Below the pieces are notes generated by a model. That model ran no database searches. It was not told the origin of the DNA and was given only the letters and a program-made list of their open reading frames with translations. Source: Lentisphaeria bacterium (GTDB lineage: Bacteria; Verrucomicrobiota; Lentisphaeria; Oligosphaerales; Oligosphaeraceae). From it: DNA of 64,000 bases. Positions 24,816 to 54,685 of this stretch are shown piece after piece. The translations under genes and the position numbers were made by a program. The DNA lies in assembly GCA_016288215.1 (NCBI GenBank), contig JAEEYQ010000006.1:1-64000 (forward strand), in the 5' to 3' direction. Every line of letters starts with the position of its first letter. Positions within the stretch are counted from its first letter, which is position 1.

Positions 24816-24842
24816 GCCGCCTTCTTTCGAATTTCTGCAATG

Positions 24843-25100
24843 AAATGAAAGAAAATGCAAGAATGGCCATGTCTCGAAAACTGGCCATTCTAGGGCCTAT
24901 GGGGCAGGGGATGTATTAATATACAGGTTTGCCCCTAAAATGCGAGGAAGGGCATCGTGGATGCGCGCAAAGGGCAAACGCCCCAAAAACAGGTGCGTTT
25001 TTTGCTCTTTTGAACGCGTTTTTTCACCATTCTAGACTCCTTTTGCGGCAAGAAAACGACATTCATTAAATGCATTCATTAGCATGCGTTTTATTGCAGA
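24843..25100 (+). repeat. Duplicated intergenic element, copy 1
   Basis: It is homologous along about 250 bp to the minus strand of 54515-54240. Shared blocks include TTCTAGG, GTATTAATATACAGG, AGGAAGGGCATCGTGG, GGGCAA, ACAGGTGC, TTTTGCTC and an AT-rich tail with GCATT/TTGCA words. It occupies almost all of the spacer between two convergent genes. It contains a 24-codon ORF that ends at the TAA inside GTATTAATATACAGG. Confidence 0.75.
24845..24919 (+). CDS. Putative 24-residue micropeptide in duplicated element, copy 1
   Basis: The ORF begins MKENARMAMSRK and ends LAILGPMGQGMY. It is collinear, without gaps, with the ORF at 54431-54505; 11 of 24 residues are identical and several other changes are conservative (E/D, L/V, I/L, M/I). 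There is no clear ribosome-binding site. Nucleotide changes are not concentrated at third codon positions (4, 6 and 7 at positions 1, 2 and 3), so a coding role is only a hypothesis. Confidence 0.25.
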   Translation: MKENARMAMSRKLAILGPMGQGMY

Positions 25101-25125
25101 GTAAGATGGCTGGATTCATATCCTT

Positions 25126-28100
25126 TTACCATCGCATGTTGGCATAAGGGTCGTCATGCTCCGTGCGCGTGTCCACGTAGATTTCCGCCTCCTTCGGTCT
25201 TTCCACGCCCTTTGTGATGAAGGACGCCCATTCGGGGCCCACCTGGACACCCGCGTTGGCCAATGCCATCGTGATCAGTCGGACGCTGTTCACATGTGTG
25301 AAGCCCAAGTCCGGACGTTCCTCCTTCGAGAAGTCCTCTGGACAGCCGGACAGCCACACCATGCGGCCTTTCCCAACAGGAATCACCGCCAGCACCCCGC
25401 TGGGTGACTTCCAGCCGTTGGACGGCACCGCTGTGACGACGGGCACCGTCCGACGGTCCCGCCAATGCACCTCCGCAGGCGACACGCCGCGCAATTCCGG
25501 CGGCAAGGCGGCGCTTGACAGCGCATTCTTCCAGCGGACATCCTCTTTGACGGCAAAGCCGAATGCCATCGCAAGGCCGGCGGCCGGCTGCGCTTTGGCT
25601 CCGGAGACGATCACCACGCCGCCAGCATCCATGAATGCCTTCAGGGACTGCGTGTCGAAGGCGGTGTCCCGTTTCAGCAGAAAGACATCATGGGAATTTG
25701 CGGCGGACGGCTCGTCGACAAGCTGGGCCGCCTGTGCGTCGCCGCGGGTCGCCATATACTCCACGACATTGCGGAGCAGGCGGTCGGCCGCCGGCTCCTT
25801 TCCGGCACGGTCTGTCACGTCCAGCTGACAGAACAACATGGATCCCTTGCCGGTCGTGGTCTCCCAAAGGGCCATGTAACGCAAATCGAACCCCGCATCC
25901 AGCAAGGGGATGCATCCCATGGCATGGGGCTTTTCCACCACGGTGGAGGCGACGACTCCCTCCAATGAACAGCGCCAGACGTGATGGTCTCCGATGAAAC
26001 GCTGCTCCGCCAGCAAGTCCGGTCGCTCCATCGTCAGTGGCTCCAGGCTCGTCTCGCCGCGCCAATCCTTCAAATCCTCCGGACGGATGCCCTTCAGGGC
26101 CGGATGACCCGCCGCGCGGATGTTCACGGACCGCAGACCGGAGGCCAATGTGCGAAGCCCAAACGTCCGCTGCAGCGTCGCCGCGCTCTGTTCGAACACA
26201 ATCACGCGTAGCCCCTCGCGGACCCGTCGGTCAAACGCCTCGAATCGAACGTCGCCCTCAAGCGCCTTGCAGCCAATCACCAGTCCGCGGCAATCCGTCG
26301 GCAGCTCCTCCGATGTGGCAATGACTGGCATGTCAATGCCAATCGCCAAAAGCGCCTTTGCCGTCTGCCCTTCGGGGTCATACAGCACCCAGCCCGTGGG
26401 AGACGTTGCAGCGGCGGTTGTCTTCGGATGGAACTCCATCATGAAATCCTTCACGTTGACGGCTTCGCCATCCACGGTCACAACAGCCTGCAACACAGCA
26501 TCTTGCCGTTCTTCCAGCTCGGGAACGGCCAGCTTGACGGAAAGCTTGCGGACTTCGCCCGGCGGCACCGCCACACGTCCCTTGCCAGAGGCGACGACAG
26601 CATCGCCGACGCGGCAGCTCCAACGAATGTCGAAGGCCGCCTCCTTGCGGCGGTCATTGATGCAGATGATCGTCTTTTCGAAGGACTCGCCGGCGCGGAA
26701 GGCATGCTCCACGGTGTACCAGCGCGTTTCGGGACCGCCAATGTAGGCGTACAACGGCGCAATCAGCTTCGGCATGACTGTCGCGCGGAGCGTTGGCTCA
26801 AAAAACTCTTCCTCCTCCGGAAGACCGCGGTCGAACAAGGAGCGGATTTCACCGCCGCCGCCTTCGTCATAGCGCCAACGGTCATACACGAAACCGGGCC
26901 TTTGGAGGTTCTTCCAATCGATTGGAACCGGAATCTCCGGCATTCCAATGGTCTGGCCGTTCTTCTGCTTCTTTACCCGCCGAAACGCATTTTCCCACGC
27001 ATTGACGCCGCCTGAAATGCCCCATGTCCGCCACGCCGGCAGCATGGCCTCGTAGTATGCGGCCGAACATTCATCGACGATGGGCGGAAACCGATAGGTA
27101 TAATAGGTATAAAGAGAACGCCATGTCCGCGAGTCCGGCTGCCAATGGGTTGCGGGGACATCCACAAACTCGTCCTTCTCAAGTTCGTAGGCCCTGTCGC
27201 CCAGGCAGATGGCGCCGTATTCCGTCATAAGCGGCTCGTTTCGCCACCAATGGGTCGGGTCGCGCATCTGAAAATCCCCTGGATACGGCGTGGCCTGCTC
27301 CACCATGAACAACGGTTTGGAGCCCTCCGCCACCCAGACTTTCAGCCATTCACGCAAATCCTGAATTTCAGGCCAGCCGAGATAGTTGTTCAGCGTGTAG
27401 AGCTCGCCGATGCGGCCGCAGGCATGATTGTACGTCGGCCGCGTCGGATCAAGTGCCTTCACCAACTCATTGCTGCGAAGCAGCCCCTTGGTCGCCACGG
27501 CGGCGTCCGAGTCGGGGGCGAAGTCCTTTTTGCCGTCAAGATAATATGGATTCTGATCCTGACCATAGCCGCGGGCGTTCATGTTCATGCGCCACATCAC
27601 CACGGACGGATGATTGACATTCGGCACCACCGCATGACTGACGACGCGAAGCCATTGCTCCTCAACAGGTTTCTGGAAAATGGCCTCGAACATGCCGTTC
27701 ACCGGCAGGGTGTCCACGCCGACCAACATGCCCTCTTCATCGCAGATGTCAAGAAAATGCGGAATCAGATCCGGCCGCCCCGGATTGTTGATGGCATCCG
27801 TGTACACATAATTGTACCCCAGTTTCATGGCGTTGCGGATCCAATGGCGAATCGCCTCCGTCGTGAACCAATTCCCGAAGAGCCCCCAATAGGCGCATGG
27901 CTTCAGGTTGAGGCGAACGCCATTGAGCATGAAATGCCGTCCTTCGACCTTGAATTCACGGAATCCGAAGCGAACGGGAAGCAGCTCGTCTATGATGGAA
28001 TTTTCTCTAAGTAATTGCAAATGAAGAATATACAACTTTGGTTGGCCCACATCCCAACAGACCGCCTCTGGCAAGGGGGCCTGGACGGCGATTGCCGTTG

Positions 28101-29406
28101 CGTCAGCTGGCAGGTTGCCCTTCATGTCCAACAGGACGCGATCGTCATCCACCACCCTGCAGCGCCAGCTCAGGCCCGTTGTGTCTTCGCCGTTTGGCAC
28201 ATGGAGGGGCACCGTGACGGACAGGTTTTTCTCTGGCGTCACGGCCGTCACGATGCGGCAGTCGCCAAGCGTCACGCCGATTGGCGTTGAATCCAAATAG
28301 ACATCGCCGTTGATGCCAATCGTCTGCCAGCGGGAATCAACCGTGGTCAACAGCGGCAGATACTCCGTTGACTGGCGGTGGACAATCAAAATCGACACCG
28401 TAAACGCCTTGCCGGGGACGGCCCATTTCGTCACGTCCACATCACCACCGTCAAAGCCCAATTGGCCGGCAAACTCGCCATTGCAGTAGACGAATGCATC
28501 CGTTGCCAAAGCGTTGAAATGCAGGATGATGCGGCGTCCAATCCACGAGGGCGGCACCTCGACGTCACGGCGGAACCATGCGGCTGACGCCTTTTCGGGC
28601 TGCCTCGCCATCGCGTCCGTCTCATGGGGCCAGCACAGCGGATGATTCAGACTCGGCACGGAAAAATTCGGCACGATGGCATCACCCCAGGCATCATCCG
28701 TCGGCGGAGGCACCGCGGCAACCGTCGGCACAGGGACATCCCCCACGCGCAGATTGGTCATCCACAGCTTGCCATGGATTCGCTTCTCCGGCCCCTCTGT
28801 CCGCAAGGCGATGAGATTCAGCTTCTCGCAACCCGCCGGTACCTGGATTCGCATGGTGACATGCCGCCAGCTGTCCGATTTCGGTATAGGAGCAGACTTG
28901 CTTGTGAAAAAGCGGAAGCCACGCGCATCCCGCAGTTCAAAATGAACAGGAGAGCCTTCAAGCTGGCTCAGCACATCAAATTCGACATTCTGCCAGCACA
29001 GCGTCTTCCATCCGCTTAAGGGATACCTGACGAAATAATAGTTCATGGCGATGGGAATGTCCGTCTCGAAGCGCAGTGACGGCGTGCCATCGCAAGTCAC
29101 ATCCCTGTCCAGCGACAGTGTCGACCGCGCCCCATCGACCTCAATGATTGACCACTTGTCCGTAACCGACTCATCGTAGGTCTCGCTCCAATGATACGTC
29201 GTCGTCGCCGTCTTCTTCACCTCGCGGGACTCGCTGCGCCATTGCCAGACGCCGTTGACGCAGATGCGTTCCCGCGCCGCAGAAGCGGTTCGCCATGCGT
29301 TTTGGAGATTCCAATTGACGCTGGAGCCTTCCGGCATCTTGGCGGCGCAGACGCAGACCGTCGCCAACAGCAACCATTCCGCCTTTACAATATTCAATAT
29401 AGACAT
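25126..29406 (-). CDS. Very large secreted GH2-like glycosidase
   Basis: The 1426-residue protein has a signal peptide (MSILNIVKAEWLLLATVCVCA). Its first ~230 residues form a CBM-like sandwich. GH2 sugar-binding and immunoglobulin-like domains follow (about 260-480), then a TIM barrel (about 490-800, with FREFKVEGRHFMLNGVRLNL). A long C-terminal region (about 880-1426) resembles a beta-galactosidase trimerisation/amidotransferase-like fold. The nucleophile candidate is Glu in EPLMTEYGA. The usual Asn-Glu acid/base pair after NHPSVVMW is replaced by RMNMNARG, so the mechanism is uncertain. A GGAG site serves ATG 29406. The substrate is unknown. It converges on the DUF4838 gene at 22092. Confidence 0.75.
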   Translation of the reverse strand: MSILNIVKAEWLLLATVCVCAAKMPEGSSVNWNLQNAWRTASAARERICVNGVWQWRSESREVKKTATTTYHWSETYDESVTDKWSIIEVDGARSTLSLDRDVTCDGTPSLRFETDIPIAMNYYFVRYPLSGWKTLCWQNVEFDVLSQLEGSPVHFELRDARGFRFFTSKSAPIPKSDSWRHVTMRIQVPAGCEKLNLIALRTEGPEKRIHGKLWMTNLRVGDVPVPTVAAVPPPTDDAWGDAIVPNFSVPSLNHPLCWPHETDAMARQPEKASAAWFRRDVEVPPSWIGRRIILHFNALATDAFVYCNGEFAGQLGFDGGDVDVTKWAVPGKAFTVSILIVHRQSTEYLPLLTTVDSRWQTIGINGDVYLDSTPIGVTLGDCRIVTAVTPEKNLSVTVPLHVPNGEDTTGLSWRCRVVDDDRVLLDMKGNLPADATAIAVQAPLPEAVCWDVGQPKLYILHLQLLRENSIIDELLPVRFGFREFKVEGRHFMLNGVRLNLKPCAYWGLFGNWFTTEAIRHWIRNAMKLGYNYVYTDAINNPGRPDLIPHFLDICDEEGMLVGVDTLPVNGMFEAIFQKPVEEQWLRVVSHAVVPNVNHPSVVMWRMNMNARGYGQDQNPYYLDGKKDFAPDSDAAVATKGLLRSNELVKALDPTRPTYNHACGRIGELYTLNNYLGWPEIQDLREWLKVWVAEGSKPLFMVEQATPYPGDFQMRDPTHWWRNEPLMTEYGAICLGDRAYELEKDEFVDVPATHWQPDSRTWRSLYTYYTYRFPPIVDECSAAYYEAMLPAWRTWGISGGVNAWENAFRRVKKQKNGQTIGMPEIPVPIDWKNLQRPGFVYDRWRYDEGGGGEIRSLFDRGLPEEEEFFEPTLRATVMPKLIAPLYAYIGGPETRWYTVEHAFRAGESFEKTIICINDRRKEAAFDIRWSCRVGDAVVASGKGRVAVPPGEVRKLSVKLAVPELEERQDAVLQAVVTVDGEAVNVKDFMMEFHPKTTAAATSPTGWVLYDPEGQTAKALLAIGIDMPVIATSEELPTDCRGLVIGCKALEGDVRFEAFDRRVREGLRVIVFEQSAATLQRTFGLRTLASGLRSVNIRAAGHPALKGIRPEDLKDWRGETSLEPLTMERPDLLAEQRFIGDHHVWRCSLEGVVASTVVEKPHAMGCIPLLDAGFDLRYMALWETTTGKGSMLFCQLDVTDRAGKEPAADRLLRNVVEYMATRGDAQAAQLVDEPSAANSHDVFLLKRDTAFDTQSLKAFMDAGGVVIVSGAKAQPAAGLAMAFGFAVKEDVRWKNALSSAALPPELRGVSPAEVHWRDRRTVPVVTAVPSNGWKSPSGVLAVIPVGKGRMVWLSGCPEDFSKEERPDLGFTHVNSVRLITMALANAGVQVGPEWASFITKGVERPKEAEIYVDTRTEHDDPYANMRW

Positions 29407-29541
29407 GGATGTAGAACTCCGTTATAATCCACAGAATCCATCGAATACCCCAAAGCGTTCCGCCGCCTTCCATGGCAGAGGGCGGAAATGGACAGGCCTT
29501 TTTCGCAAAATCGATATGTGACTATGCCGCAAGGCTTTCCG

Positions 29542-30582
29542 TCATTTTAGCTGTCGCCATTGGGTCTGGTTGAAGAGGGCGTTGCTGTTCGGGTCGAAGG
29601 AGGCCGTGCTGGCGTTTGGGGTGTTGAAGCCGTTGTTGTGGTAGATGACCTCGTTGTCGCTGTTGATCCATGCATGGTCGTAGCGGTTGTCCACAAACAT
29701 CTTCTCGCCGGTGTTCGGGTTGGAGACCGTGTCCACGTCGCGGATGTATTCGGACCATTTGTCCCGCACGCGGTCCAAGGTGGCGGAAGTGTTGGCGGCC
29801 GCCTCCAGTTGCTGGTTGCGGATCTCGTTCTGGACGCGAAGCCAGTTCGCCGTCCGCTGGGAGGCGATCTGATTGACCACCGCCGTGAAATGCGGATTCA
29901 TCTGCACCTTCTTTATCATCTGCTCCAGCCGCGCCCGCGTGTCCGTCTCCAATTCGGGCGGACAACTGAACGACATGGGGAAAAGTAGCTCGACGACCGT
30001 GGAATAGCCCATGCCCGGTCGGTTTTCCGTCGCCAGCATGGGGATGGCGAAGACCACGATGACGCGTTTGCCGTCGCGCCGTCCCTCATAGTGGATGGTC
30101 AGCTCCGTGAACAGGAAGTTGGTCGGCTGAATGCCATGCTCCCGCGCCTGCCGCATGCGGGATTCGAGCAGATTGCGGTCCGGCTGCTGCGGGGTGAAAT
30201 GCGCCTCCACCAGCCGCACGTTCGTCAGTTTGTGGTCCGTCTGGACGTTGGGCAGCCACGTGTTGGCCAACAGGACCGGATTCTGCAGGAAGGGAACCTG
30301 CTGGATCTGGCCCACGGCGGGAAGCACGGCCAGAGACGAGAAGATGATTTTGACCTGCTGATCGGGAGAGAGCATCCACACATACCAGCTGACGGGCGTG
30401 GCCGGCTCCGTGGTCCAGGTGGTCTTGCCGCCTGCCAGCCAGTTGGGCTGCACGGGATAGCTCAAGACTGGCATCTGTGTCCGCTGGTCAACCAGAAAAT
30501 ACTGGCGTTCAGTCTGTTGCGCATAGGACGACACCGCCAGCGTCCATACCGCCAGCCCTAAAACAACCTTGTCAAACCACAT
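29542..30582 (-). CDS. Secreted protein of unknown function
   Basis: The 346-residue protein has a signal peptide (MWFDKVVLGLAVWTLAVSSYAQ). A central part contains YYVWMLSPDQQ-like and VIVVFAIPMLA segments. The C-terminal ~80 residues carry the pattern DNRYDHAWINSDNEVIYHN followed by a terminal TQWRQLK, which recurs in several uncharacterised secreted proteins. ATG 30582 is preferred because AAAGGAGT lies just upstream; in-frame ATGs at 30603 and 30645 would extend it. No catalytic motif is recognised. Confidence 0.6.
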   Translation of the reverse strand: MWFDKVVLGLAVWTLAVSSYAQQTERQYFLVDQRTQMPVLSYPVQPNWLAGGKTTWTTEPATPVSWYVWMLSPDQQVKIIFSSLAVLPAVGQIQQVPFLQNPVLLANTWLPNVQTDHKLTNVRLVEAHFTPQQPDRNLLESRMRQAREHGIQPTNFLFTELTIHYEGRRDGKRVIVVFAIPMLATENRPGMGYSTVVELLFPMSFSCPPELETDTRARLEQMIKKVQMNPHFTAVVNQIASQRTANWLRVQNEIRNQQLEAAANTSATLDRVRDKWSEYIRDVDTVSNPNTGEKMFVDNRYDHAWINSDNEVIYHNNGFNTPNASTASFDPNSNALFNQTQWRQLK

Positions 30583-30788
30583 GAAAACTCCTTTTGTCTG
30601 CATCTTGAATTCATCGTCCGCATTCCTCGTCGCGGCAGCAATCATCGTTCATTACTGTAATGTGCAATTCACAGTTGGCAATTCGAAATATGGCTGTAAT
30701 CCCTTACAGAGTGATGCGGCGACAGAGTGTATGCGGACAGCTTTTTCTGCATATCCATGTTTCGAAAGGCAAGTCCTAGTCGCTTGCT

Positions 30789-31880
30789 TCATTTCTCCGT
30801 GAGATTGTCGCGAATGGCCTCTATTTCCTGCTGAGAAAGACCGATGGCCAAGAGATATTTTTCGACCTGTTCCCTGCGTGTGCCTTCGGGGGCATAGGCC
30901 TGCAAGTTCTTGAGCCACTGCTGCAAATAGGCAATTGAGTGATGGCGGTAGAAATTGGCCATGGTGCTCAAATCGTAGTCGAGGAACGCAAGTTCCTCAT
31001 TGACGCCGAGGAGGAAATTGAGCAGAAGGGCGACTTCCCCTGTCCGATCCACGCCGCCATAGCAGTGGAAATAAATGGGATAGTTGTTCTTGTCGGCGAA
31101 AACGCGCATTGTGTCGCGCCACAAGGGAAACTGCGCCTCCCGATTTTCGGGCTTGAAGCTATTGTAGGCGTTGATGGCGTAATGGAACCACGTTACGGAG
31201 GGCCCCAGGGGGCTGCCAGTCATGCCTTCGACCTGACTGTCATAGCGCAAATCGAGATCGGTCTTGATGCCGAGTTCCTTAAGCATGACGGTACGCGCCT
31301 GCTCATTGAGGGCGAAAGGCGTCTGCAGTTGCGTGCCGCGGTAGAGGAGGCCCTGACGGGTGCGACCGACGTTGGGAATCTCCTTGCCACCCCAGTCGCG
31401 CACATTGACGGGACCCGTGGCCGACACAAAAATCTGTCGGAAGGGTCCTTGCGTGTTAAAGGAGCAGGTGCCAGAGCAAATTCCGCCGGCATGGACACGC
31501 CAGCGGTATTCGCGGTCAATCTCAAGATTGTAGACCTCGACCCTCTTGCTTTCGGTTGTGATGACGCGGTCTATTCTCTTGAATTCATGGTCAGTAGAAA
31601 TTTCAAGCGTGTATGGCGGTGGCAGTGGTGTCTCCCATGTGAAAACAATGGGAACAGGTTGCCCTTTGACATCCTTATAGAAGTCTCCAGGGTAGTTCTT
31701 TGCCTCCTTATCCCTGTTTTCCGCCAAAATCTGACGCCAGTCTTCGCGCATGTGGGTGACAACGCTGCCAAATTCAGGCGCCACAAGCGCAATTGGGGCA
31801 TTATGTCTGCAGGCACTCAAGAAAAGCAGGACGGTCAGTAGCAGGATACTGGTCAAGCGGCACGGTTTGTCCATATTCAT
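30789..31880 (-). CDS. Lipoprotein tyrosine phosphatase with fibronectin-like domain
   Basis: The 363-residue protein starts with a lipoprotein signal ending LFLSAC. It then has a short fibronectin type III-like domain (PYTLEISTDHEF, YRWRVHAGGICSG). The C-terminal half is a Y_phosphatase3-type protein tyrosine phosphatase: VNVRDWGG, LLYRGTQLQTPFALN, DLDLRYDSQVEG and the P-loop FHCYGGVDRTGEVALLL with catalytic Cys and Arg (C-x5-R). It would act on phosphotyrosine or another phosphate ester outside the inner membrane. The start is at ATG 31880 or 31874. The next gene upstream is divergent. Confidence 0.85.
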   Translation of the reverse strand: MNMDKPCRLTSILLLTVLLFLSACRHNAPIALVAPEFGSVVTHMREDWRQILAENRDKEAKNYPGDFYKDVKGQPVPIVFTWETPLPPPYTLEISTDHEFKRIDRVITTESKRVEVYNLEIDREYRWRVHAGGICSGTCSFNTQGPFRQIFVSATGPVNVRDWGGKEIPNVGRTRQGLLYRGTQLQTPFALNEQARTVMLKELGIKTDLDLRYDSQVEGMTGSPLGPSVTWFHYAINAYNSFKPENREAQFPLWRDTMRVFADKNNYPIYFHCYGGVDRTGEVALLLNFLLGVNEELAFLDYDLSTMANFYRHHSIAYLQQWLKNLQAYAPEGTRREQVEKYLLAIGLSQQEIEAIRDNLTEK

Positions 31881-31931
31881 TGCTTTCTGTTTTGGTGTAA
31901 CGTCGGCTTCCACCCCTTTTTCTAACCACAA

Positions 31932-32360
31932 CAGTTAGAAACGCGGAAACGTCAATATTTTAAATGCCGCTGTCCAGTTTGCAAATGCCCCATTGTCTTT
32001 TTTTCTCTTGTGGCGATGAGACGCGAGACGAGAGAACATGGACGGGAGACGAGGGACGGGGGACGGGAGGAAGTGAAAAGTGAGACGAGAGACGGGAAAA
32101 AGTGGGACGGGAGACGGGAAGAGTGAAAAGTAACGTTTTATCAGTGACTTACGCGTCTCGTGTCTTACGTCTCCCGTCTCGCGTCCCAGTCCTCCCATCT
32201 CCCGTCCCTCGTCCCCCGTCACAAGGGCATTAAATTCATTGCAATTGTGGTTTCTGTGGGTCGCGGGAGTTGCCCTTTGAATCACGCCGATTATAGTAAA
32301 GCATCCTATTCGCCTCTCTCATGATTTTTTTATTCACTTTTATATCATAAAGGAAACATA
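31932..32360. other. Intergenic region with inverted GA/CT heptamer arrays, between divergent genes
   Basis: No gene is visible. A purine-rich array (GACGGGA/GAGACGA type) at about 32019-32125 faces a pyrimidine-rich complementary array at about 32153-32222, so the two could fold into a long imperfect hairpin. The promoters of the phosphatase gene and the first clustered DUF4838 gene must also lie here. Confidence 0.6.
32019..32222. repeat. Inverted heptamer arrays GACGGGA / TCCCGTC
   Basis: The left arm is a run of 7-8 bp units such as GAGACGG, GGGACGG and GAGACGA, with some TGAAAAG units like those at 19749. The right arm is made of CGTCTCC, CGTCCCA, CGTCCCT and similar. The arms are separated by about 28 bp. 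Confidence 0.75.
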
Positions 32361-35816: not shown

Positions 35817-35990
35817 AGGGGCAGAGGCTTCGAGTGGTTTATATAAGTTCATGATTTGCATTATGTTAGCGATGAATGAGGGGCATCGGTTTTACTCATG
35901 GCTCCCCATGCGTCACCACCCGCAAATATATTCATAACCTGTTTGATACAAATGAAATAGAAAGATTGTTGAAGAGTAGGTAACACAACC

Positions 35991-41191: not shown

Positions 41192-41455
41192 CACTCCAGA
41201 CACTTTCGTTATTGAAGATGCTGCAGGCAATTCCTGAACTTGCTGATACACGTCTTGTTGGAGGGACAGCTTTGGCGTTGCAGCTTGGGCATCGCATCAG
41301 CGTGGATCTTGATTTCTTCGAAAAGTGGGAGAAAATCCGTTCCGCAGTACGCAGTTTCTTGCAATCTTTCAATGATTGACGGTTGTTCCCCGTCGGTTAT
41401 TGGCCAAAGGGCTGAATCACAGCATTTTAAATACCAAATATTTAATTTCAATGAA
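41170..41455 (+). pseudogene. Truncated, frameshifted AbiEii/AbiGii-family nucleotidyltransferase
   Basis: The frame starts MLCFKTIALQTLSLLKMLQ and contains LVGGTALALQLGHRISVDLDFF, the conserved nucleotidyltransferase motif of AbiEii proteins with the GG-S/T and DxD-type acidic residues. A stop interrupts it at 41379. The next ~25 codons in another frame (SVIGQRAESQHFKYQIFNF) look like its continuation and then end at the ribosome-binding site of paralogue B. Complete family members are usually over 200 residues. GAGGAG at 41156-41161 is the likely original ribosome-binding site. Confidence 0.7.
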
Positions 41456-41464
41456 AGGAGTTCC

Positions 41465-44983: not shown

Positions 44984-45177
44984 GTTGGATGGTGCTATTC
45001 AGGATTCCGCTAAAACCTATGGAATACACGGAAAAAACTGAAAGGACAAGTCAAATGGCTCAAGTCCCTCTTGAGTGAAAAGGGAGGCGGGCGTCAACGT
45101 CTTCTGAGTTATTCTGTGTGTGCTATGGACTCATCGAAAAGGGATGATTGCATCATTGTTGATTAGGAAAGGAAGCC

Positions 45178-48100
45178 ATGTTTTCTGCAATCTCTTGGCG
45201 ATCGTCGAAGGCAAGCATTTTCTGTTCTATTGTAACTCTTTGTGTGTCAATGACTTATGCACAAGAAGGAAATCTGTGGCAAGACCCTGGCTTTGAGCAG
45301 CTTGGGGAGGCGATCGCCAATCCCCACGGCGGCGCGAAGGCCGGACGATTCACCATTGCCCATAAGAATGTTCGGGACACCTATGAGCAGCGTCAGCTGG
45401 ACGTGGAGCCTTTCGCCGTCTACGAGGTGACGGCCTTTGTCCGCCGCGACCCCGCCAGCAGCGGCTATGTCCAGGCCCTTCACGCCCATGGGTGGGACTC
45501 CTTCGGATGGGGTTTCACCACATGGATCGATGTTCCCGTCACGGACCAATGGACTCCCGTCTCCACTCGCATCAGCGTGCCCGACAACACGGTCACCTTC
45601 AACTGCCTCGCCATCGGCGGCTCCAAAGGGCATGGGGACATCACCGCCTACATCGACGACCTGAAAATCGTCAAAATCCTCTCCGGAGAGGAACATCTCA
45701 GCCAGCTGAGGCAGAAGGCGGTCGCCGACCTGAATCTGGCCGAATGCGAGATGCTGGCTCGTTACTGGTTGAAGGAGAACAGGTTAGACGAAATGGACAA
45801 ACTGCGGCTTGCCACGCCCCATGACCAGGCGAGGGCGGACATCGCCTGCCTGCTGGCCCAGAAGGCAGAGGCTGACCCCGCCGCCCAAATCCCCTTCGTG
45901 GCGGACATGATTTGCCACGGGGCCCTGAACCTTGCCTATGGCGAAAAGCGGCTTCAGGAGTTCTTCGAAAGCCTCTCGTTCAGAAGCAGCGCCGCGGTCT
46001 GCGTCGCCGCCATCCGGCAGGGAGGGGATGCGGAGTCCATCCAGAAGGCCGTCCAGCAGTATCAGCGGTATCTGGACTCACAGGACACGTTCGCCACCGC
46101 CGCGGGAATTCAGGAGGCCATCCAGACTCTTGACGCCGCCAAAGGCACCTTGACGGGCCCGCAGGCGGCCGTTGGCGAGACGCTTCTGAACACCCTGACG
46201 GAAAACGCGAAGGCCCTCCATGACACGCTGTTGGCACGGCAGGGCTCCCGTGTCGTCACCATCAGCGGCATCCCCCTTACCGCCGACGGCACGGCTATTG
46301 TCCTTCCGCAGGAGCCGACTCCTTCGGAACGGCACGCCGCCAAAGAGCTGCGCCGCTATCTGTATGCGGTCACGGGCCTTGAACTTCCCATCGTGAACGA
46401 AACGGCTCCGCTGCCGCCTCACGTCATGCTCATCGGCCGCAGCGCCAAAGCGGCGGCCTATGGCTTCGACGTGGACTACGCGAAACTGGGTCTGGAGGGC
46501 ATCCACATCGAGAGCGCCAACGGCAATCTCATGCTGGCCGGCGGCAAACGCGGCGTCGTCTACGCCGTCTACCGCTTTTTGGAGGAGTATCTGGACTGCC
46601 AATGGTTCATGGCGGACTGCGAACGAATCCCCAACAGCGGCCGCGCCGACTTGGGGGACTTCCGCAAGGTCTACGTGCCTCCGCTGGAGTACCGCGACAC
46701 GGACTATTCCGTCTGCCGCCCCACGGCCTTTGGTGTGCGCAATCAGCTCAACGGCATCAACTCCATGGCTGACGAGGCATGGGGCGGCCACATCTCCTAC
46801 TGCGGCTTCGTCCACACTTTTGAGCAGCTGGTCCCGCCTGAGAAGTACGGGATGGACCATCCGGAGTACTTTTCGGAAATCCATGGAAAGCGCCTGGTCA
46901 ACAGCTCCCAACTCTGCCTCACCAATCCGGACGTGAAGCGCATCGCGACGGAAACGATTCTGCAATGGATTCGTTCCAATCCGGAGGCCACCATCTTCAG
47001 CGTCTCGCAGAATGACTGGGGCAACTACTGCACCTGCCCTGAATGCAGCGCCCTTGCCGAGAAGGAAGGCAGCCAGAGCGGCCCGCTGCTCCATTTCGTC
47101 AATCACATCGCCGACGCCGTGCGAGAGCAGTACCCCGACAAGATCATCGACACTTTGGCCTACACCTATACCCGCAAGCCGCCGAAATACGTGAAGCCGG
47201 CCCCCAATGTGGCCGTCCGTCTTTGCAGCATCGAATGCTGCTTCGCGCATCCGCTGGAGAGCTGCCCCGTCAACAAGACCTTCGTGGAGGACATCATCAA
47301 CTGGTCCAAAATCTGCAAGCGCCTCCACATCTGGGACTACGTCATCAACTACGCCCACTGCATCCAGCCCTTCCCCAACCTCCGCGTCCTCAAGTCCAAC
47401 ATCAATTTCTTCATAAATCACGGTGTGACAGGTATTTACGAAGAAGCCAACTATTTCAGCCCAGGTGGCGAGCTGGCCGAGCTGCGCTCCTACATGCTGG
47501 CCAAGCTGCTGTGGGACCCCTCCGCAGACGACCAAAAGGCCATCTTCGATTTCACGGAAGCCTACTACGGCCCCGCCGGCAAGCACATCCGCGACTATCT
47601 GGACACCATCCACACCGTCTGCGACAAGAATCTCCATGTGCGCATCTACGATCCGCCGGAGGAGTATCTTGCGGACAAGGACATGCTCCAAAAGGCCGAC
47701 GCCTGCCTTGAAAAGGCAATGGATGCCGTGAAGGACAATCCGACCCTGCTTCAGCGGGTGGAACTGGCCTCCTTGCCCATGCTCTACACCAACATCCAGT
47801 TTGGGACAGGGCAGCTCCAACGTAGCGGCAACACGTTGAAAATCAATGGCGTATACAATGTAAAGAAGCTGGAGGACTTTGTCCGCATCGCCAAACGGGC
47901 GGATGTCACCCATGTCGCTGAAGGCACCAGACTCGATGTGTGGCTCGCCCAAAAACAGGCCATTGGAGACAAGGAGACTTTGGACATCATTACGCTGGAG
48001 TCCCCTTTCATGATCGTGGAGCTGGTGCCGACTTTGGGCGGTCGCGTCTGGCGGGCCGTCCACAAGGCCAGCGGCCATGAAATCCTGCGCGTCGTGGGCG

Positions 48101-48687
48101 ACAATGACGTGGGCTACACGCCTAGCAATGGCGGTTATGAGGAATACAACAACGATCAATACCGCGGCAGTGGCTTCGGAGAGGCCTTCCAAGTGGTGGA
48201 GGCCACGTCCACCTTCGCCGTCCTCCGCTGCCAGTTCAAGGACGGCTCCATCGCCACCCGCACTGTCTCCCTCCTTTCCGACCAGCCCGGCTTCACGGTG
48301 ACCACCCAATACAACGGCGTCACGTCGCTGAAAGCCCGTTGCTGCCGCAATCATCCGGAGTTCAATGTGCCGAAACCCACCGATGCCACCCTGTTTGTCA
48401 AAAAGGCTGACGGCATCTCCCGCTTCGATTTGAAGAAGCAGCAGAGCGAGATTTGGATGCAGGAGGACGCGCTTCCCGTCGGCGAATGGGGCATCCAGTT
48501 CCCCATCAACGGCAAGACCGCCACGCTGACCTGCCGCTTTGACCCCGCGAATGTCAAAACCTGTTATGTCCATGTGGCCCCCTATGAGAATCGCATCAAT
48601 CTGGAGGAGTGGACAAAGGAGCTTCCTCTGACGCCCACATTCGGCCCGCGCCTCAAAAACACATACATATTCACCATTGACCAATAG
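45178..48687 (+). CDS. Secreted DUF4838-domain glycosidase-like protein, cluster paralogue C
   Basis: The 1169-residue protein has a signal peptide cleaved near MTYAQ. Domain order matches B: NLWQDPGFEQLGEAI at the start of the CBM-like region, VDYAKLGLEGIHIES in the alpha-glucuronidase-N-like region, CTCPECSALAEKEGSQ near residue 617, and a mutarotase-like C-terminus ending PTFGPRLKNTYIFTIDQ. AGGAAAGGAAG at 45165-45175 serves ATG 45178. Only 30 bp separate it from paralogue D, so C, D and the DUF5722 gene are probably one transcript. Confidence 0.87.
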   Translation: MFSAISWRSSKASIFCSIVTLCVSMTYAQEGNLWQDPGFEQLGEAIANPHGGAKAGRFTIAHKNVRDTYEQRQLDVEPFAVYEVTAFVRRDPASSGYVQALHAHGWDSFGWGFTTWIDVPVTDQWTPVSTRISVPDNTVTFNCLAIGGSKGHGDITAYIDDLKIVKILSGEEHLSQLRQKAVADLNLAECEMLARYWLKENRLDEMDKLRLATPHDQARADIACLLAQKAEADPAAQIPFVADMICHGALNLAYGEKRLQEFFESLSFRSSAAVCVAAIRQGGDAESIQKAVQQYQRYLDSQDTFATAAGIQEAIQTLDAAKGTLTGPQAAVGETLLNTLTENAKALHDTLLARQGSRVVTISGIPLTADGTAIVLPQEPTPSERHAAKELRRYLYAVTGLELPIVNETAPLPPHVMLIGRSAKAAAYGFDVDYAKLGLEGIHIESANGNLMLAGGKRGVVYAVYRFLEEYLDCQWFMADCERIPNSGRADLGDFRKVYVPPLEYRDTDYSVCRPTAFGVRNQLNGINSMADEAWGGHISYCGFVHTFEQLVPPEKYGMDHPEYFSEIHGKRLVNSSQLCLTNPDVKRIATETILQWIRSNPEATIFSVSQNDWGNYCTCPECSALAEKEGSQSGPLLHFVNHIADAVREQYPDKIIDTLAYTYTRKPPKYVKPAPNVAVRLCSIECCFAHPLESCPVNKTFVEDIINWSKICKRLHIWDYVINYAHCIQPFPNLRVLKSNINFFINHGVTGIYEEANYFSPGGELAELRSYMLAKLLWDPSADDQKAIFDFTEAYYGPAGKHIRDYLDTIHTVCDKNLHVRIYDPPEEYLADKDMLQKADACLEKAMDAVKDNPTLLQRVELASLPMLYTNIQFGTGQLQRSGNTLKINGVYNVKKLEDFVRIAKRADVTHVAEGTRLDVWLAQKQAIGDKETLDIITLESPFMIVELVPTLGGRVWRAVHKASGHEILRVVGDNDVGYTPSNGGYEEYNNDQYRGSGFGEAFQVVEATSTFAVLRCQFKDGSIATRTVSLLSDQPGFTVTTQYNGVTSLKARCCRNHPEFNVPKPTDATLFVKKADGISRFDLKKQQSEIWMQEDALPVGEWGIQFPINGKTATLTCRFDPANVKTCYVHVAPYENRINLEEWTKELPLTPTFGPRLKNTYIFTIDQ

Positions 48688-48717
48688 CAACCATCCCGCA
48701 AAAAAAGGAAACCAACC

Positions 48718-51700
48718 ATGCTCAAAAGACTATTCGTGTTCTGCTCTGTCATGGCGGCACTGACCTGCCTCAATGCACAAAATCTGTGGAAGGACCCTGG
48801 CTTCGAAAAAAGCGGCGTGTCCGTCCCCTTCGCCCACGGCGGCGAAAAGGTGGGCAGACATACGATTGGCGAAAAGGCCTATTGGCGTGAATATCAGCAT
48901 GCTAGAGTGCCTGTGGAGCCTTTCGCCGTCTATGAGGCCAGTGCCTATGTCCGCCGAGACGCCTCCGGCTCCGGAACCGTCTACGCCCTTCATTCCTATG
49001 GATGGGACAGCTTCGGATGGGCCTTCTGGTCCACTGACAGCGTTCCTGTGACAGACCAGTGGACGAAAGTCACCACTCGAATTTCAGTGCCGGCGGACTT
49101 CGTCGATTTCAGCCCTCTTGTCTTCAACAACGCGGAGAACTCCACCGCCTACATCGACGATCTGGAAATCGTCAAAGTCATGTCAGCGGAAGACCACATC
49201 AGCCAGCTTAAGGCAATCGGCGACGACATTCCGGAGACCGAATGCTCGCTGCTTGCACGTTACTACCTCAAGCAGAATGACATGGATTCATTGCGCCTGC
49301 TGTTGCGCAGGAATGCCAGCGACCACGCGAAGTCTGATATCTATTGCCTGCTCGCCCAGCGGGAACAGGAGGCGAACAAGCAGCTTGCCAACGTCGTGGG
49401 CATGATTCGCTTCGGTGCCCTGAATTATCCAGACGGCCACAAGCGGCTTCAGGAATTCGTCGCCCCCTATTCCTGCCAGCAGTTGACGACCCTCTGCATG
49501 AGCGTCATCTCCCACGGCACCGACATGGCATACACCCGCAAAGTCATTGACCAGATAAAGAATCAGTTCGATAAAGGCTACCCCCTCTACGAACTGAAAG
49601 AGGCCCAAGGCATTTTTCAGGCAACGCAAGAAACGAATACCTTTCAACCCGAACAGAGCAAGCTACTTGCAGAACTCTCCTCCAATCTGCAGCGCCTTCT
49701 GAAGCGAGCGCTTGGCAGCCGCACCATCACGCTGGACAATGTGCCCCTCGTCGAAAAGGACTACGCCATCGTCCTTCCCGCGCAGCCCACGCCCTCTGAG
49801 ACAAAGGCCGCCAGGGAACTCTGCTTCTTCCTGGAGAAAATCGCCGGACAATCCATTCCCATCAAAAAAGAAGACGAGCCGCTGCCTGCCCATGCCATCT
49901 TCATCGGCCGCAATACAAAGGCCGCCGAATACGGCTTCAGCGTGGATTACGCCAAACTGGGCCTGGAGGGCATCCACATCGAAAGCAACAATGGCAATCT
50001 GATGCTCGCCGGTGGACAGCGCGGCGTCCTCTACGCCGTCTTCACCTTCCTGGAGGACTACCTGGGCTGCCAGTGGTTCACGGCGGACTGCTCCACGATT
50101 CCGGCCAACGGCGCCGTCGCCCTCAATGGCATCCGCAAAGTCTACGTTCCCCCGCTGGAATACCGCGACACGGACTATCCCAACTGCCGTCCGCCCGAAT
50201 TCGGCGTGCGCAACAAGCTCAACGGCCTCTACTCCAGTGCGGAAGAGGATTGGGGCGAACACATCCGATACAAGGGTTTCGTCCACACCTTCGGCAGCCT
50301 CGTCCCGCAGGAAATCTATGCGGCGGGGCATCCTGAATACTATTCGGAAATCAACGGCGTCCGCGTGCTGGAGCGCACCCAGCTCTGCCTGACCAATCCA
50401 GACGTGAAGCGCATCGCGCTGGAGACCGTTCGCAACTGGCTCCACGACAATCCGGAAGCCACCATCTTCAGCGTCTCCCAGAACGACTGGGCCAACTACT
50501 GCACCTGCAAGGAATGCAGCGCCCTCGCCGAAAAGGAAGGCAGCCAGGCAGGCCCACTGCTCCATTTCGTCAATTACATCGCAGACGGCGTCCGCGACGA
50601 ATTTCCTGACAAAATCATCGACACACTTGCCTACCAGTACACCCGCAAGCCGCCAAAATTCGTCAAGCCCGCACCAAACGTGGCCGTCCGCCTCTGCAGC
50701 ATCGAATGCTGCTTCGCCCATCCCCTGGAGAGCTGCCCCTTCAACAAGACTTTCGTGGACGACATCATCGGCTGGTCCAAAATCTGCAAGCGCCTCCACA
50801 TCTGGGACTACGTCATCAACTACGCCCACTGCATCCAGCCCTTCCCGAACTTCCGTGTCTTGAAGCCCAACATCAATTTCTTCATAAATCACGGCGTTAC
50901 AGGAATTTACGAAGAGGCGAACTATTTCAGCAAAGGCGGTGAGTTGGCCGAGCTGCGCACCTACGTGCTCGCCAAATGCCTATGGGACCCCTCCTACGAC
51001 GACAAAAAGGCCGTCTTTGATTTCACGGAAGCCTACTACGGCCCCGCCGGCCAGCACATCCGTGACTATCTGGAACTCATCCACACCGTCTGCGACAAGC
51101 CTGGCCTGCATCTTCGCATCTACACCTCCCCAAACAACTATCTCAATGATCCGGAGATGCTTGCGAAGGCCTCCGTTTGTCTGGACAAGGCGCTGGAAGC
51201 CGTGAAGGACGACGAGACGCTGCGCCACCGCGTGGAAGTTGCCACGCTGCCGCTCATCTACACAAAAATCGCGCTGGTCAACAACAGCTTCTGGCGCAAG
51301 GGCAACATGCTTTCCACCTCCATCGCCGAAAGCGACCTGTTGAACGTCTTTGAGAGAGTCGCTAAAAAGGAAGGCATCAATGCCGTCGCCGAAGGCAGGA
51401 GCTATAATGATTGGGTCGAAAAGCAGAAGAAGTCCAAAGACGCGGAAGGGGTGGACATAGTCCAGCTCGAATCATCCTCATTCCTGCTGGAAATCCTCCC
51501 GAAGCTCGGCGGACGCATCTGGCGCGCCGTCGACAAGAAAAGCGGCTACGAGCTGCTGCGCGTTGTCGGCGACGACAAGAGCGGCCTCGCCCCCGGAATC
51601 GGCGGCTACGAAGAATATAACTGCGATGAATACCGCGGCGGCGGCCATATGGAGACCTACCAGCTGGTGGAACAGTCGGCGGACACGGTCATTCTCCGCT

Positions 51701-52167
51701 GCCAGTTCAAGGACGGCGCCATCGCCACCCGCCGCATCTCCATTCTTCCCGACCAGGCGGGATTCACTGTAACCACCCAGTTCACAGGCATTAAGGATAT
51801 GAAGGCACGCAGCTGCCGCGTCCATCCCGAATTCCATATCGTTAATGCCGAAGATGCTGTCCTCCGCACCAAGACGATGGACGGCAGTTTCACGGAAGCG
51901 CCTCTGAACAAGCTCTTCATAGGCGGTGAAATCTGGCTGAACAACGACAAGCTCATCCCCAACAATGAATGGGCCATCCAATTTCCGCTGGACGGCAGGA
52001 AGGCCACCCTCACTTGCCGCTTCAACCGAGAGGACGTCTCCATCTGCTATATCAATGTCGATGGGAGCGAAGAGCGTATCAATCTGGAGGAATGGACGAA
52101 GAAGCTGCCGCTGACTCCCACCTCCGGCCCACGCCTATCCAACACGTATCTCTTTACCGTGGAGTAG
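48718..52167 (+). CDS. Secreted DUF4838-domain glycosidase-like protein, cluster paralogue D
   Basis: The 1149-residue protein has a signal peptide (MLKRLFVFCSVMAALTCLNA). It has the full paralogue architecture, with CTCKECSALAEKEGSQ near residue 595, RVLKPNINFFINHGVTGIYEE and the end PTSGPRLSNTYLFTVE. The central CBM-to-helical region is the most altered part of the four. AAGGAAA precedes ATG 48718. It lies between C and the DUF5722 enzyme, with 30-34 bp spacers. Confidence 0.87.
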   Translation: MLKRLFVFCSVMAALTCLNAQNLWKDPGFEKSGVSVPFAHGGEKVGRHTIGEKAYWREYQHARVPVEPFAVYEASAYVRRDASGSGTVYALHSYGWDSFGWAFWSTDSVPVTDQWTKVTTRISVPADFVDFSPLVFNNAENSTAYIDDLEIVKVMSAEDHISQLKAIGDDIPETECSLLARYYLKQNDMDSLRLLLRRNASDHAKSDIYCLLAQREQEANKQLANVVGMIRFGALNYPDGHKRLQEFVAPYSCQQLTTLCMSVISHGTDMAYTRKVIDQIKNQFDKGYPLYELKEAQGIFQATQETNTFQPEQSKLLAELSSNLQRLLKRALGSRTITLDNVPLVEKDYAIVLPAQPTPSETKAARELCFFLEKIAGQSIPIKKEDEPLPAHAIFIGRNTKAAEYGFSVDYAKLGLEGIHIESNNGNLMLAGGQRGVLYAVFTFLEDYLGCQWFTADCSTIPANGAVALNGIRKVYVPPLEYRDTDYPNCRPPEFGVRNKLNGLYSSAEEDWGEHIRYKGFVHTFGSLVPQEIYAAGHPEYYSEINGVRVLERTQLCLTNPDVKRIALETVRNWLHDNPEATIFSVSQNDWANYCTCKECSALAEKEGSQAGPLLHFVNYIADGVRDEFPDKIIDTLAYQYTRKPPKFVKPAPNVAVRLCSIECCFAHPLESCPFNKTFVDDIIGWSKICKRLHIWDYVINYAHCIQPFPNFRVLKPNINFFINHGVTGIYEEANYFSKGGELAELRTYVLAKCLWDPSYDDKKAVFDFTEAYYGPAGQHIRDYLELIHTVCDKPGLHLRIYTSPNNYLNDPEMLAKASVCLDKALEAVKDDETLRHRVEVATLPLIYTKIALVNNSFWRKGNMLSTSIAESDLLNVFERVAKKEGINAVAEGRSYNDWVEKQKKSKDAEGVDIVQLESSSFLLEILPKLGGRIWRAVDKKSGYELLRVVGDDKSGLAPGIGGYEEYNCDEYRGGGHMETYQLVEQSADTVILRCQFKDGAIATRRISILPDQAGFTVTTQFTGIKDMKARSCRVHPEFHIVNAEDAVLRTKTMDGSFTEAPLNKLFIGGEIWLNNDKLIPNNEWAIQFPLDGRKATLTCRFNREDVSICYINVDGSEERINLEEWTKKLPLTPTSGPRLSNTYLFTVE

Positions 52168-52201
52168 GTTATAAATTCGGAATAAAAGCGAGGAGGATGT
52201 T

Positions 52202-54196
52202 TTGGGCAGTCGACTGTCATCCATGGCATTGGTGTCGTTGGTCACCGCCGCCATGTCTCTGGCTGCGGCGGCGGAAATCCGCAGTGTCCAGGCGACGCTC
52301 CGCGAGGTGGTGTTCACTTTTGACGGCGCGGCGAAGGAGGTGCGGCTGCGCGGCAGTACGGCTGCTGGGGAGGAGATTGCGCAAGTCATTCTGCCTGTAA
52401 TAGATGGAAAAGCGGTGCTGCCCCTTCGGCAGGACGGCTATGATCCCGTCCTGCTGGGGTGGAGACTGGAGGAGAATCCGGAGCGCCCCGCACAATTCGT
52501 CACGGACTTCCTTCAGGTGCCCGCCGGCTATGAGTCGCCGCTGCTGCGGCCAACGGAAATCAAGGGCCTAAGCTGCATCGTGGATTTGGAGGACGCCGTG
52601 GCGCTGGGTGTCCGCCATGTCCATGACAACGTGACCATCAACCAGCTGAAGGGCAGTCCAGAGGCGGATGATGCCATCCCCTTTGACTTCGACGGCGCAA
52701 CTGTCTATTTCAACGGCCATTACGTCCGCCAGCTGGACCAGCGCTTCCGCCGCTTTCATGACAACGGCATCTCCGTCTTCGTCGTCTTTCTGAACCAAGA
52801 CACCGCCGACCCTATCCTGCGGCATCCGGGGACCCTTTCCGCCCCGCCGCGGATGCTGTGCGCCTTCAACACCGTGACGCGGGAGGGCATCCGCTTCTTC
52901 GCCGCCAGCTGCGCCTTCCTTGCGCAACGCTATGGCCGAAGCGACGCCAAATACGGTCAAATCAGCGGTCTCATCGTGGGCAACGAGTTTCAGCAGCACG
53001 CCATTTGGTACAACCTGGGGGAGGCGTCGCTGGAGCAGGTCGCCTTCCACTACGGCAACGCGGTCCGGTTGGCCTGGCTGGCCGCCGCCCGCTACAATCC
53101 CGACCTCCGAATCTACATCTCCATGGAGCATCATTGGACGGCGGGGGACGTCAACAACCGCAAAGTCCTGCCGGGCAAGCCGGTTCTAAGCGAGGTCCAT
53201 CGCCGTCTCCGCGAAGGGGGAGACATCCCATGGAACCTGGCCTTCCACCCTTATCCGGAGAACCTCTTCAATCCGTGCTTCTGGAATGACCGTTCCGCAA
53301 AGGACCATTTCGACACGCCGAAAATCACGTTTCGCAATCTGGAGCAGCTTGTTGGCTTCCTCAAACAGCCGGAATGGCTCTATCGCGGCCGCTGCAGGGA
53401 CATTGCGCTGACTGAGCAGGGCTTCAACTTGCCTGGAGACACAAAAGAGGACGAAATCACGCAGGCCGCCGCCTACGCCTGCGCCTTCAAACTCGTTCAA
53501 CGGCATCCTGAAATCAGCGCCTTCATCCTGCATCGCCATGTGGACTTCAAAGGCGAAGGTGGGCTACGTCTCGGCTTGCGGGCCTATGCCACGGGCACGG
53601 TGGCCTCTCCAGGGGAAAAGCGTCTGGTCTACGATGTGTTCAAAGCCGCCGGAACCCCACAGGAAGAGGCGGCTTTCGCCTTCGCCCTGCCCATCGTGGG
53701 CATGGCCTCATGGGATGAGCCGCTGCCGCCGCTGCGCACCGCCGCCCTCCCCGAAAATACACGGCTGGCCTTCGATTTCGTCAATGAATTCGACACCGCC
53801 GAAAAGGACAACAATGCGGATGTCTCCGTGCGGGATTTGGTCTACGCCGCCGGCTGGCTGGCGGCCTCCATTTATCAGCATCCTTCTGAAAAGGGTTGGG
53901 GATCAGTGAGTTACACCGTTTCTCTGCCGCCGCTGAAAACCGGAGAGACGTTGCATTTGGCGACTCGGACCGTGGTGGACCATCCCCAGAGCAACGGCGT
54001 CCGCTGCCGCATTCTCATTGACGGCAAGGAGGTTGCCGCCCATTTGCAGCAGGGCAAGACGCCTCATCCTGTCGATGTCGATTTGAGCGCATGGGCGGGG
54101 CGGCAAGTCTCTGTCCGCTTCCAAGTGGACTGCAATGGCGACCTTACCGGCGACTGGTTCTACTGGCTGGAGCCTCTGATTCTTGTTCAGCTGTAG
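52202..54196 (+). CDS. Secreted DUF5722-domain glycosidase-like protein
   Basis: The 664-residue protein has an N-terminal signal peptide (ALVSLVTAAMSLAAAA), a small beta domain and a TIM-barrel core of the DUF5722 type. The candidate acid/base is Glu in LIVGNEFQQHAIW (about residue 260) and the candidate nucleophile is Glu in IALTEQGFN (about residue 403), the two-glutamate layout of clan A glycosidases. A C-terminal sandwich (KTGETLHLATRTVVD) closes it. The best start is TTG 52202, because AGGAGG at 52191-52196 lies 5 nt upstream; ATG 52223 is the alternative. It is the last gene of the tandem cluster. Confidence 0.78.
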   Translation: MGSRLSSMALVSLVTAAMSLAAAAEIRSVQATLREVVFTFDGAAKEVRLRGSTAAGEEIAQVILPVIDGKAVLPLRQDGYDPVLLGWRLEENPERPAQFVTDFLQVPAGYESPLLRPTEIKGLSCIVDLEDAVALGVRHVHDNVTINQLKGSPEADDAIPFDFDGATVYFNGHYVRQLDQRFRRFHDNGISVFVVFLNQDTADPILRHPGTLSAPPRMLCAFNTVTREGIRFFAASCAFLAQRYGRSDAKYGQISGLIVGNEFQQHAIWYNLGEASLEQVAFHYGNAVRLAWLAAARYNPDLRIYISMEHHWTAGDVNNRKVLPGKPVLSEVHRRLREGGDIPWNLAFHPYPENLFNPCFWNDRSAKDHFDTPKITFRNLEQLVGFLKQPEWLYRGRCRDIALTEQGFNLPGDTKEDEITQAAAYACAFKLVQRHPEISAFILHRHVDFKGEGGLRLGLRAYATGTVASPGEKRLVYDVFKAAGTPQEEAAFAFALPIVGMASWDEPLPPLRTAALPENTRLAFDFVNEFDTAEKDNNADVSVRDLVYAAGWLAASIYQHPSEKGWGSVSYTVSLPPLKTGETLHLATRTVVDHPQSNGVRCRILIDGKEVAAHLQQGKTPHPVDVDLSAWAGRQVSVRFQVDCNGDLTGDWFYWLEPLILVQL

Positions 54197-54239
54197 CCAA
54201 GGGAATGCAGCGGTTCATCATCGAAGGAGCTCTCCCGCC

Positions 54240-54515
54240 GCCATGAAAATTGCATCAAAATGCATAATAATGAATTGCAATAGATGAATGCCTGATTTTG
54301 ATCGCGAGAGAAGGCGAAAACGACGAAAATCGTGTTCGGAGGAGCAAAATTTGGCACCTGTTTTGGAGACGATTGCCCGTTGCGTGGCCCCACGATGCCC
54401 TTCCTTGCGTTTGGGGTGTCACCCTGTATATTAATACCTCCCTTGGTCAATAGGGCCTAGAAGGGCCACTTTTTGAGGTTTTGCCGTTGTTGCATTGTCT
54501 TGCATTATCTTGCAA
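54240..54515 (-). repeat. Duplicated intergenic element, copy 2
   Basis: Read on the minus strand, it matches copy 1 (24843-25100) block by block: TTCTAGG, GGTATTAATATACAGG, AAGGAAGGGCATCGTGG, CGGGCAA, ACAGGTGC, TTTTGCTCC and the AT-rich tail. Individual hairpins are not shared between the two copies (for example GGGTG-A-CACCC is only here), so a conserved RNA fold is not obvious. Confidence 0.75.
54431..54505 (-). CDS. Putative 24-residue micropeptide in duplicated element, copy 2
   Basis: The ORF begins MQDNATTAKPQK and ends VALLGPIDQGRY. It is the same length as, and collinear with, the ORF at 24845-24919. NA, LGP, QG and the terminal Y are shared. No ribosome-binding site is clear. Confidence 0.25.
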   Translation of the reverse strand: MQDNATTAKPQKVALLGPIDQGRY

Positions 54516-54685
54516 TGTGAATTTGGTGGAATGGAATGCCGTCGCCGTGGAATTCCGTGGCAAAGGGATGAAAACGTGACACGGCGGCGAGAAAAAACGG
54601 AAGAAAAGTATATATTTCTGTTGTCAGACAGCCGCATCATCGTCGGCCCGATTTCATGAATTCCATCAAAGAAGGAGAAACGCAC

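What the first reader, a model, noticed from the sequence alone, without database searches (positions are those of the whole stretch)
24843..54515. Duplicated ~250-bp element with a collinear 24-codon ORF
24843-25100 (plus) and 54515-54240 (minus) are homologous over their whole length and lie in otherwise unrelated spacers 29 kb apart. Each holds an ORF of exactly 24 codons ending at the same TAA, with 11 identical residues and several conservative changes. Conservation is just as strong after the stop (ATACAGG, AGGAAGGGCATCGTGG, ACAGGTGC). It could be a small peptide gene with a regulatory 3' region, an sRNA or a miniature mobile element.
Basis: seen in the sequence. Interest (0 to 1): 0.7.

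Follow-up and report, generated by a model that had tools for sequence, protein, structure and literature searches.

The report
Dispersed 260-bp noncoding repeat family
The two look-alike stretches are 2 of at least 75 scattered copies of a small, non-coding, hairpin-rich repeat that has spread through the gaps between genes of this bacterium and some relatives; the tiny 'peptide gene' in it is a coincidence.

Summary
The duplication is real: window 24835-25098 (+) and 54251-54515 (-) align end to end at 73% identity. Both belong to a dispersed repeat family of at least 75 intergenic copies in this 3.7-Mb genome: subfamily A (42 copies, all 241 bp or longer, including both window copies) and subfamily B (33 matches, 23 of 240 bp or more, about 287 bp). 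Both share a core around AGGTATTAATATAC and have TTGCA-rich inverted ends. A third subfamily (about 50 core matches) occurs in another genus of the family. Occurrence is patchy: 7 of 29 family genomes, none of 19 others in the order, with 50, 4 and 0 copies in three species of one genus. One site is filled in one species and empty at the syntenic spacer of two congeners. The 24-codon ORF is intact in only 16 of 42 A copies: peptide rejected. Compensatory pairing is absent or weak, so a structured sRNA is not supported, but about 50 columns are nearly invariant, so copies are not decaying neutrally. Best reading: a MITE/ERIC-like miniature interspersed element, mostly at gene 3' ends. No target-site duplication, autonomous partner or annotated relative was found.

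The parts
24835..25098 (+). Element copy 1 (subfamily A), between the 3' ends of two convergent genes
54251..54515 (-). Element copy 2 (subfamily A), downstream of the 52223-54196 gene and upstream of the 54656-55210 gene
24836..24860 (+). Left end of copy 1: three TGMAA motifs at about 10-bp period
   Evidence: sequence; alignment A2; pattern search
25061..25098 (+). Right end of copy 1: inverted TTGCA/TTCA motifs
   Evidence: sequence; alignment A2
24910..24927 (+). Near-invariant centre of copy 1, GATGTATTAATATACAGG (family consensus GAGGTATTAATATACAGG)
54423..54440 (-). Near-invariant centre of copy 2, GAGGTATTAATATACAGG
24845..24919 (+). 24-codon ORF of copy 1: chance open frame, not a gene
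   Evidence: intact in 16 of 42 copies
54431..54505 (-). 24-codon ORF of copy 2: chance open frame, not a gene
22101..24815 (+). Flanking gene (DUF4838/GH67-N-like), stop about 20 bp before copy 1
25126..29406 (-). Flanking convergent gene (GH2-like), stop about 28 bp after copy 1
52223..54196 (+). Flanking gene (DUF5722), stop about 56 bp from copy 2
54656..55210 (+). Flanking gene (redoxin-like), start about 141 bp from copy 2

Best explanation
A lineage-specific family of miniature, non-coding, non-autonomous interspersed elements that works like the ERIC/Correia/YPAL class of bacterial small mobile sequences. Shown: about 260-290 bp units with inverted TTGCA-type ends and a palindromic core, at least 75 intergenic copies, genus-specific subfamilies, presence/absence at a syntenic site, and exchange of a central module between dispersed copies. 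Inferred: the unit was copied to new intergenic sites by an enzyme supplied in trans that recognises the TTGCA ends, in ancestors of this species. Copies survived best where they do no harm, chiefly downstream of stop codons (convergent or tandem spacers). Remaining copies are old and are held by sequence constraint, most plausibly because the ends and the AGGTATTAATATAC centre bind a protein and/or because the transcribed hairpins affect the 3' ends of neighbouring mRNAs. The binding protein, the mobilising enzyme and the 3'-end role are not shown.
For: Copy number and full length: 42 A copies (all 241 bp or longer) and 33 B matches. Ends: A has TGMAA motifs at about 10-bp period, inverted at the two ends; B has TTGCA-N5-TGCAA at both ends, and every hit of that pattern in this genome lies in a B copy or in one A copy (C48:26418), apart from 6 prepilin coding sites and one solo site. 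Patchiness: 76 matches in own genome, 50/4/0 in three congeners of genus g2, 1-8 in further genomes of two genera, 0 elsewhere in the order. Filled versus empty syntenic spacer: G019:C4 versus G027:C103 and G009:C166. Dispersal: flanking genes are not shared between own and G020 copies, apart from a few matches with no conserved arrangement. A 168-bp 96%-identical pair in unrelated flanks in G020, and a copy whose flank matches one copy (56/58) while its central 40 bp match another (39/40 versus 16/40). Location: A copies 16 convergent, 21 tandem, 2 divergent; convergent enrichment p about 1e-5, against a small baseline of 53 spacers. Constraint: 50 columns at 95% or more versus 0.14 expected under uniform decay in A.
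Against: No target-site duplication. No autonomous element or transposase bearing these ends; Y1 transposase genes carry no adjacent copy. No recent copies in this genome except one local duplication (A maximum identity 78%). The excess of invariant columns and the absence of truncated A copies are unusual for dead MITEs. At the empty/filled site the spacer is too diverged to read exact junctions, so loss cannot be separated from gain.
Confidence: 0.7

Rival explanations
1. A maintained dispersed regulatory or architectural DNA site: a host protein binds the phased TTGCA ends and the AGGTATTAATATAC centre, and the many copies serve the cell (for example as insulators between convergent genes or chromosome-organising sites).
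For: Strong column-specific constraint after dispersal; full-length persistence at a mean 64% identity; ends almost exclusive to the elements; A copies cluster in convergent spacers where they fill nearly all of the gap.
Against: Patchy between close relatives, 50, 4 and 0 copies in one genus; no orthologous placement between genera; orientation is mixed along single contigs, so it is not a replication-polar site; B copies are not restricted to 3' ends.
Confidence: 0.2
2. A multicopy structured RNA, or a 3'-UTR RNA element that controls mRNA ends (terminator or RNase site).
For: Consensus folds better than column-shuffled alignments in A, B and C; A copies mostly lie 10-220 nt downstream of co-oriented stop codons, with a tandem orientation bias of 16:5, p = 0.027; weak covariation excess in A (6/500 shuffles).
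Against: No compensatory excess in B or C; default RNAalifold finds no structure for A; no Rfam family; no terminator or promoter pattern clearly above chance.
Confidence: 0.12
3. REP/REPIN-type elements moved by a RAYT (Y1) transposase.
For: Y1 genes occur in 5 of the 6 genomes searched, all element carriers, and not in the sixth, element-free G012; mosaic, hairpin-rich, 3'-end distribution.
Against: Unit is 260-290 bp, not a 20-40 bp palindrome; no copy flanks any Y1 gene examined; Y1 genes are common in bacteria.
Confidence: 0.08
4. A small peptide gene family, the element being its transcript.
For: Both window copies and 14 others keep a 24-codon frame to the same TAA.
Against: 26 of 42 copies do not keep it; 20 of 42 are length-shifted out of frame; codon position 3 is as conserved as 1 and 2; the TAA sits inside the invariant TATTAATATAC block, which explains the shared stop.
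Confidence: 0.02

Closest known systems
ERIC/IRU/RU-1 and Correia/NEMIS elements (MITE-like small mobile sequences; PMC2229807, PMC10969869)
   Same: Short, multicopy, intergenic, inverted ends, hairpin-forming, reported effects at gene 3' ends
   Different: No sequence kinship detected; no TSD found here; longer unit with a near-invariant internal AGGTATTAATATAC motif; copies much more diverged and never truncated in A
YPAL/RU-2 (168-bp Yersinia palindromic sequence, PMC2229807)
   Same: Similar size, palindromic interior, intergenic, known by filled/empty sites
   Different: YPAL makes TSDs and has recent copies; here no TSD, and terminal as well as internal repeats
BIME/REP and REPIN elements (PMC3116915; PMC3733652; general features from own knowledge)
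   Same: Mosaic, palindromic, intergenic distribution, module exchange
   Different: Much longer defined unit; no RAYT adjacency found

Membership tests
MITE | Short (<500 bp), multicopy, dispersed, non-coding unit | tested here: met
MITE | Terminal inverted repeats | tested here: met
   B: ATRTTGCATTTTTTGCAA-type ends, inverted; A: imperfect, 10-bp-phased motifs inverted; C ends not defined
MITE | Target-site duplication | tested here: not met
   no convincing excess of flank identity for any length or offset; literature says these wane in old copies (PMC10969869)
MITE | Ends shared with an autonomous transposon | tested here: not met
   end patterns found only in element copies, chance coding sites and one solo site; assembly 94% complete
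MITE | Filled versus empty sites between relatives | tested here: met
   junctions not readable
REP/REPIN with RAYT | Copies flank a Y1 transposase gene | tested here: not met
Structured ncRNA family | Compensatory base-pair changes | tested here: inconclusive
   B and C none beyond shuffles; A weak
Structured ncRNA family | Match to a described RNA family | tested here: not met
   Rfam 15
Small peptide gene | Reading frame kept across copies | tested here: not met
   16 of 42 intact
Maintained protein-binding or RNA element | Transcription or protein binding | not testable with these tools
   needs RNA-seq or binding assays

The most novel reading that the evidence does not exclude
A new class of maintained dispersed nucleoprotein site: a formerly mobile element whose phased TTGCA ends and AGGTATTAATATAC centre bind a host protein, kept in about 75 copies to separate convergent transcription units or organise the chromosome, with central modules exchanged by gene conversion.
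Probability: 0.2. Interest if true: 0.65.

Novelty: new member of a known kind. Interest (0 to 1): 0.42.

Why it matters
It is an apparently undescribed family of small dispersed elements in a poorly studied bacterial lineage, covering about 0.5% of the genome. Unlike typical MITEs, the A copies are all full length and share about 50 near-invariant columns at a mean 64% identity, which makes the open question of whether such repeats are junk or working parts directly testable. It also warns annotators against calling the recurring 24-codon frame a peptide gene.

Tried and rejected
Peptide gene: rejected. RNA covariation by G-statistics with APC: only linked sub-motif blocks, no helices. Local folding z-scores: modest in A, strong only at palindromes in B. 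Target-site duplication scan: negative. TTGCA-N5-TGCAA sites outside copies turned out mostly to be prepilin codons IAIIAILAG. Exact core patterns in 84,980-genome genome contigs and in viral contigs: none, or one chance match in a coding frame. Shared loci between own genome and G020: none with conserved arrangement. RAYT link: no adjacency.

Full report
OBSERVATION. Window 24835-25098 (+) and 54251-54515 (-) are homologous end to end: 73% identity, E = 2.9e-33 in a whole-genome BLASTN. The 24-codon frames exist as described.

NOT A PAIR BUT A FAMILY. BLASTN of copy 1 against its own genome (3.70 Mb, 73 contigs) gave over 30 clear matches. A sequence-only profile (R1) found 42 strong near-full-length copies and some 30 weaker ones. 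The weak set proved to be a second subfamily with its own ends. Subfamily A: 42 copies, all 241 bp or longer. Subfamily B: 33 matches, 23 of 240 bp or more, typically 286-288 bp. A combined core profile (R2) finds 76 matches in this genome, 50 in G020 (another genus of the same family), 1-8 in five more genomes, and none in the other 22 genomes of the family or in the 19 genomes of other families of the order. BLASTN reaches no other genome and an exact core pattern finds nothing in GTDB contigs.

ANATOMY. All subfamilies share a core with AGGTATTAATATAC (A: AGGTATTAATATACAGG; B: AGGTATTAATATACCT, a near-perfect palindrome; C in G020: AGGTATATATATACGC and variants), GGCC-rich hairpin sequences, and GGACGCGATTTTCGCC-like sequence near the 3' side. 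A begins with three TGMAA motifs at about 10-bp period and ends with the same motifs inverted. B begins and ends with TTGCA-N5-TGCAA. In the genome this B pattern occurs only in B copies, in one A copy, in six prepilin genes where it is codon coincidence, and at one solo site upstream of a GH2-type gene. GC content is 43% (A) and 48% (B) against 57% for the window.

NOT A PEPTIDE. Only 16 of 42 A copies keep an intact frame at the homologous place, 20 have a length change that is not a multiple of three, and codon positions 1/2/3 are conserved at 0.72/0.80/0.77. The shared TAA is part of the invariant TATTAATATAC block.

RNA OR DNA. With RIBOSUM scoring the consensus of each subfamily folds better than column-shuffled alignments (z = -5.8 A, -17 B, -5.3 C), B mainly through its palindromic ends and centre. 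But pair counts show no compensatory excess in B or C and a weak one in A, and default RNAalifold finds nothing for A. So the palindromes are real features of the sequence, while selection on an RNA fold in individual copies is not demonstrated. No Rfam family matches. Simple promoter and terminator scans are near chance level.

CONTEXT. By a home-made gene caller, A copies lie in 16 convergent, 21 tandem and 2 divergent spacers, usually 10-220 bp past a stop codon, and 16 of 21 tandem ones share the genes' direction (p = 0.027). Against a small baseline (53 spacers) convergent spacers are enriched (p about 1e-5). B copies are less biased. Orientation is mixed along single contigs, so they are not replication-polar. 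Proteins of flanking genes show only scattered paralogy within the genome and no conserved arrangement with G020 sites.

MOBILITY AND AGE. In G020, two copies are 96% identical over exactly 168 bp in unrelated flanks. One of them shares its left flank with a third copy (56/58 bases) but its central 40 bp with the first (39/40, versus 16/40 with the third), which indicates exchange of a module between dispersed copies. In genus g10, some sites are shared by congeners (G027/G019, 92% over 740 bp), while the spacer after a YegP-like gene holds the element in G019 and lacks it in G027 and G009. In this genome copies are old: mean identity 64% for A, maximum 78%, star-like tree. No target duplication is detectable. 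Yet 50 A columns are at least 95% conserved versus 0.14 expected under uniform decay, so either copies are constrained after insertion or they were drawn from a pool of diverged active sources.

MECHANISM. The best-supported reading is a miniature interspersed element copied in trans, recognised at its TTGCA ends, tolerated mainly behind stop codons, and afterwards constrained. The trans-acting enzyme was not found: end patterns occur almost only in the copies, and Y1 transposase genes, present in this genome, carry no adjacent copies. Constraint suggests a bound protein or a 3'-end function; both are inference.

COMPARISON. Small mobile sequences such as ERIC, Correia and YPAL (PMC2229807) and MITEs (PMC10969869) share size, copy number, inverted repeats, hairpins and 3'-end effects. 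Formal MITE membership is not claimed because target duplication and shared transposon ends were tested and not found.

Noticed in passing
G000 C59:78523-78864 (L323): IS200-like Y1 transposase ORF flanked by direct repeats about 1 kb apart (frames coding LRLRLRRHAYPRLCSSVPSGLTRELH); a different repeat family, no element copy adjacent.
   Followed up: partly
G000 C38:36391-36743 (L110): A B-subfamily fragment abuts the right end of an A copy, a chimeric or nested arrangement.
   Followed up: no
L169, L181, L184 (G020) and L310 (G001): Element core preceded by a shared ~100-bp hairpin block (GCTGTTACAAAA...GTAGCAGC), a composite repeat.
   Followed up: partly
G000 C33:40736-40750 (L270): Solo TTGCAAATATTGCAA site just upstream of a GH2-type gene start, outside any element copy.
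   Followed up: no
G019/G027 loci (query 3127-3177 and 3528-3631): Two further short dispersed repeats (about 50 and 100 bp) hit dozens of places in genus g10 genomes.
   Followed up: no
G000 C47:23468-25887 (L155): Local duplication of a gene together with a B copy (93% identical copies), the only recent pair seen in this genome.
   Followed up: partly
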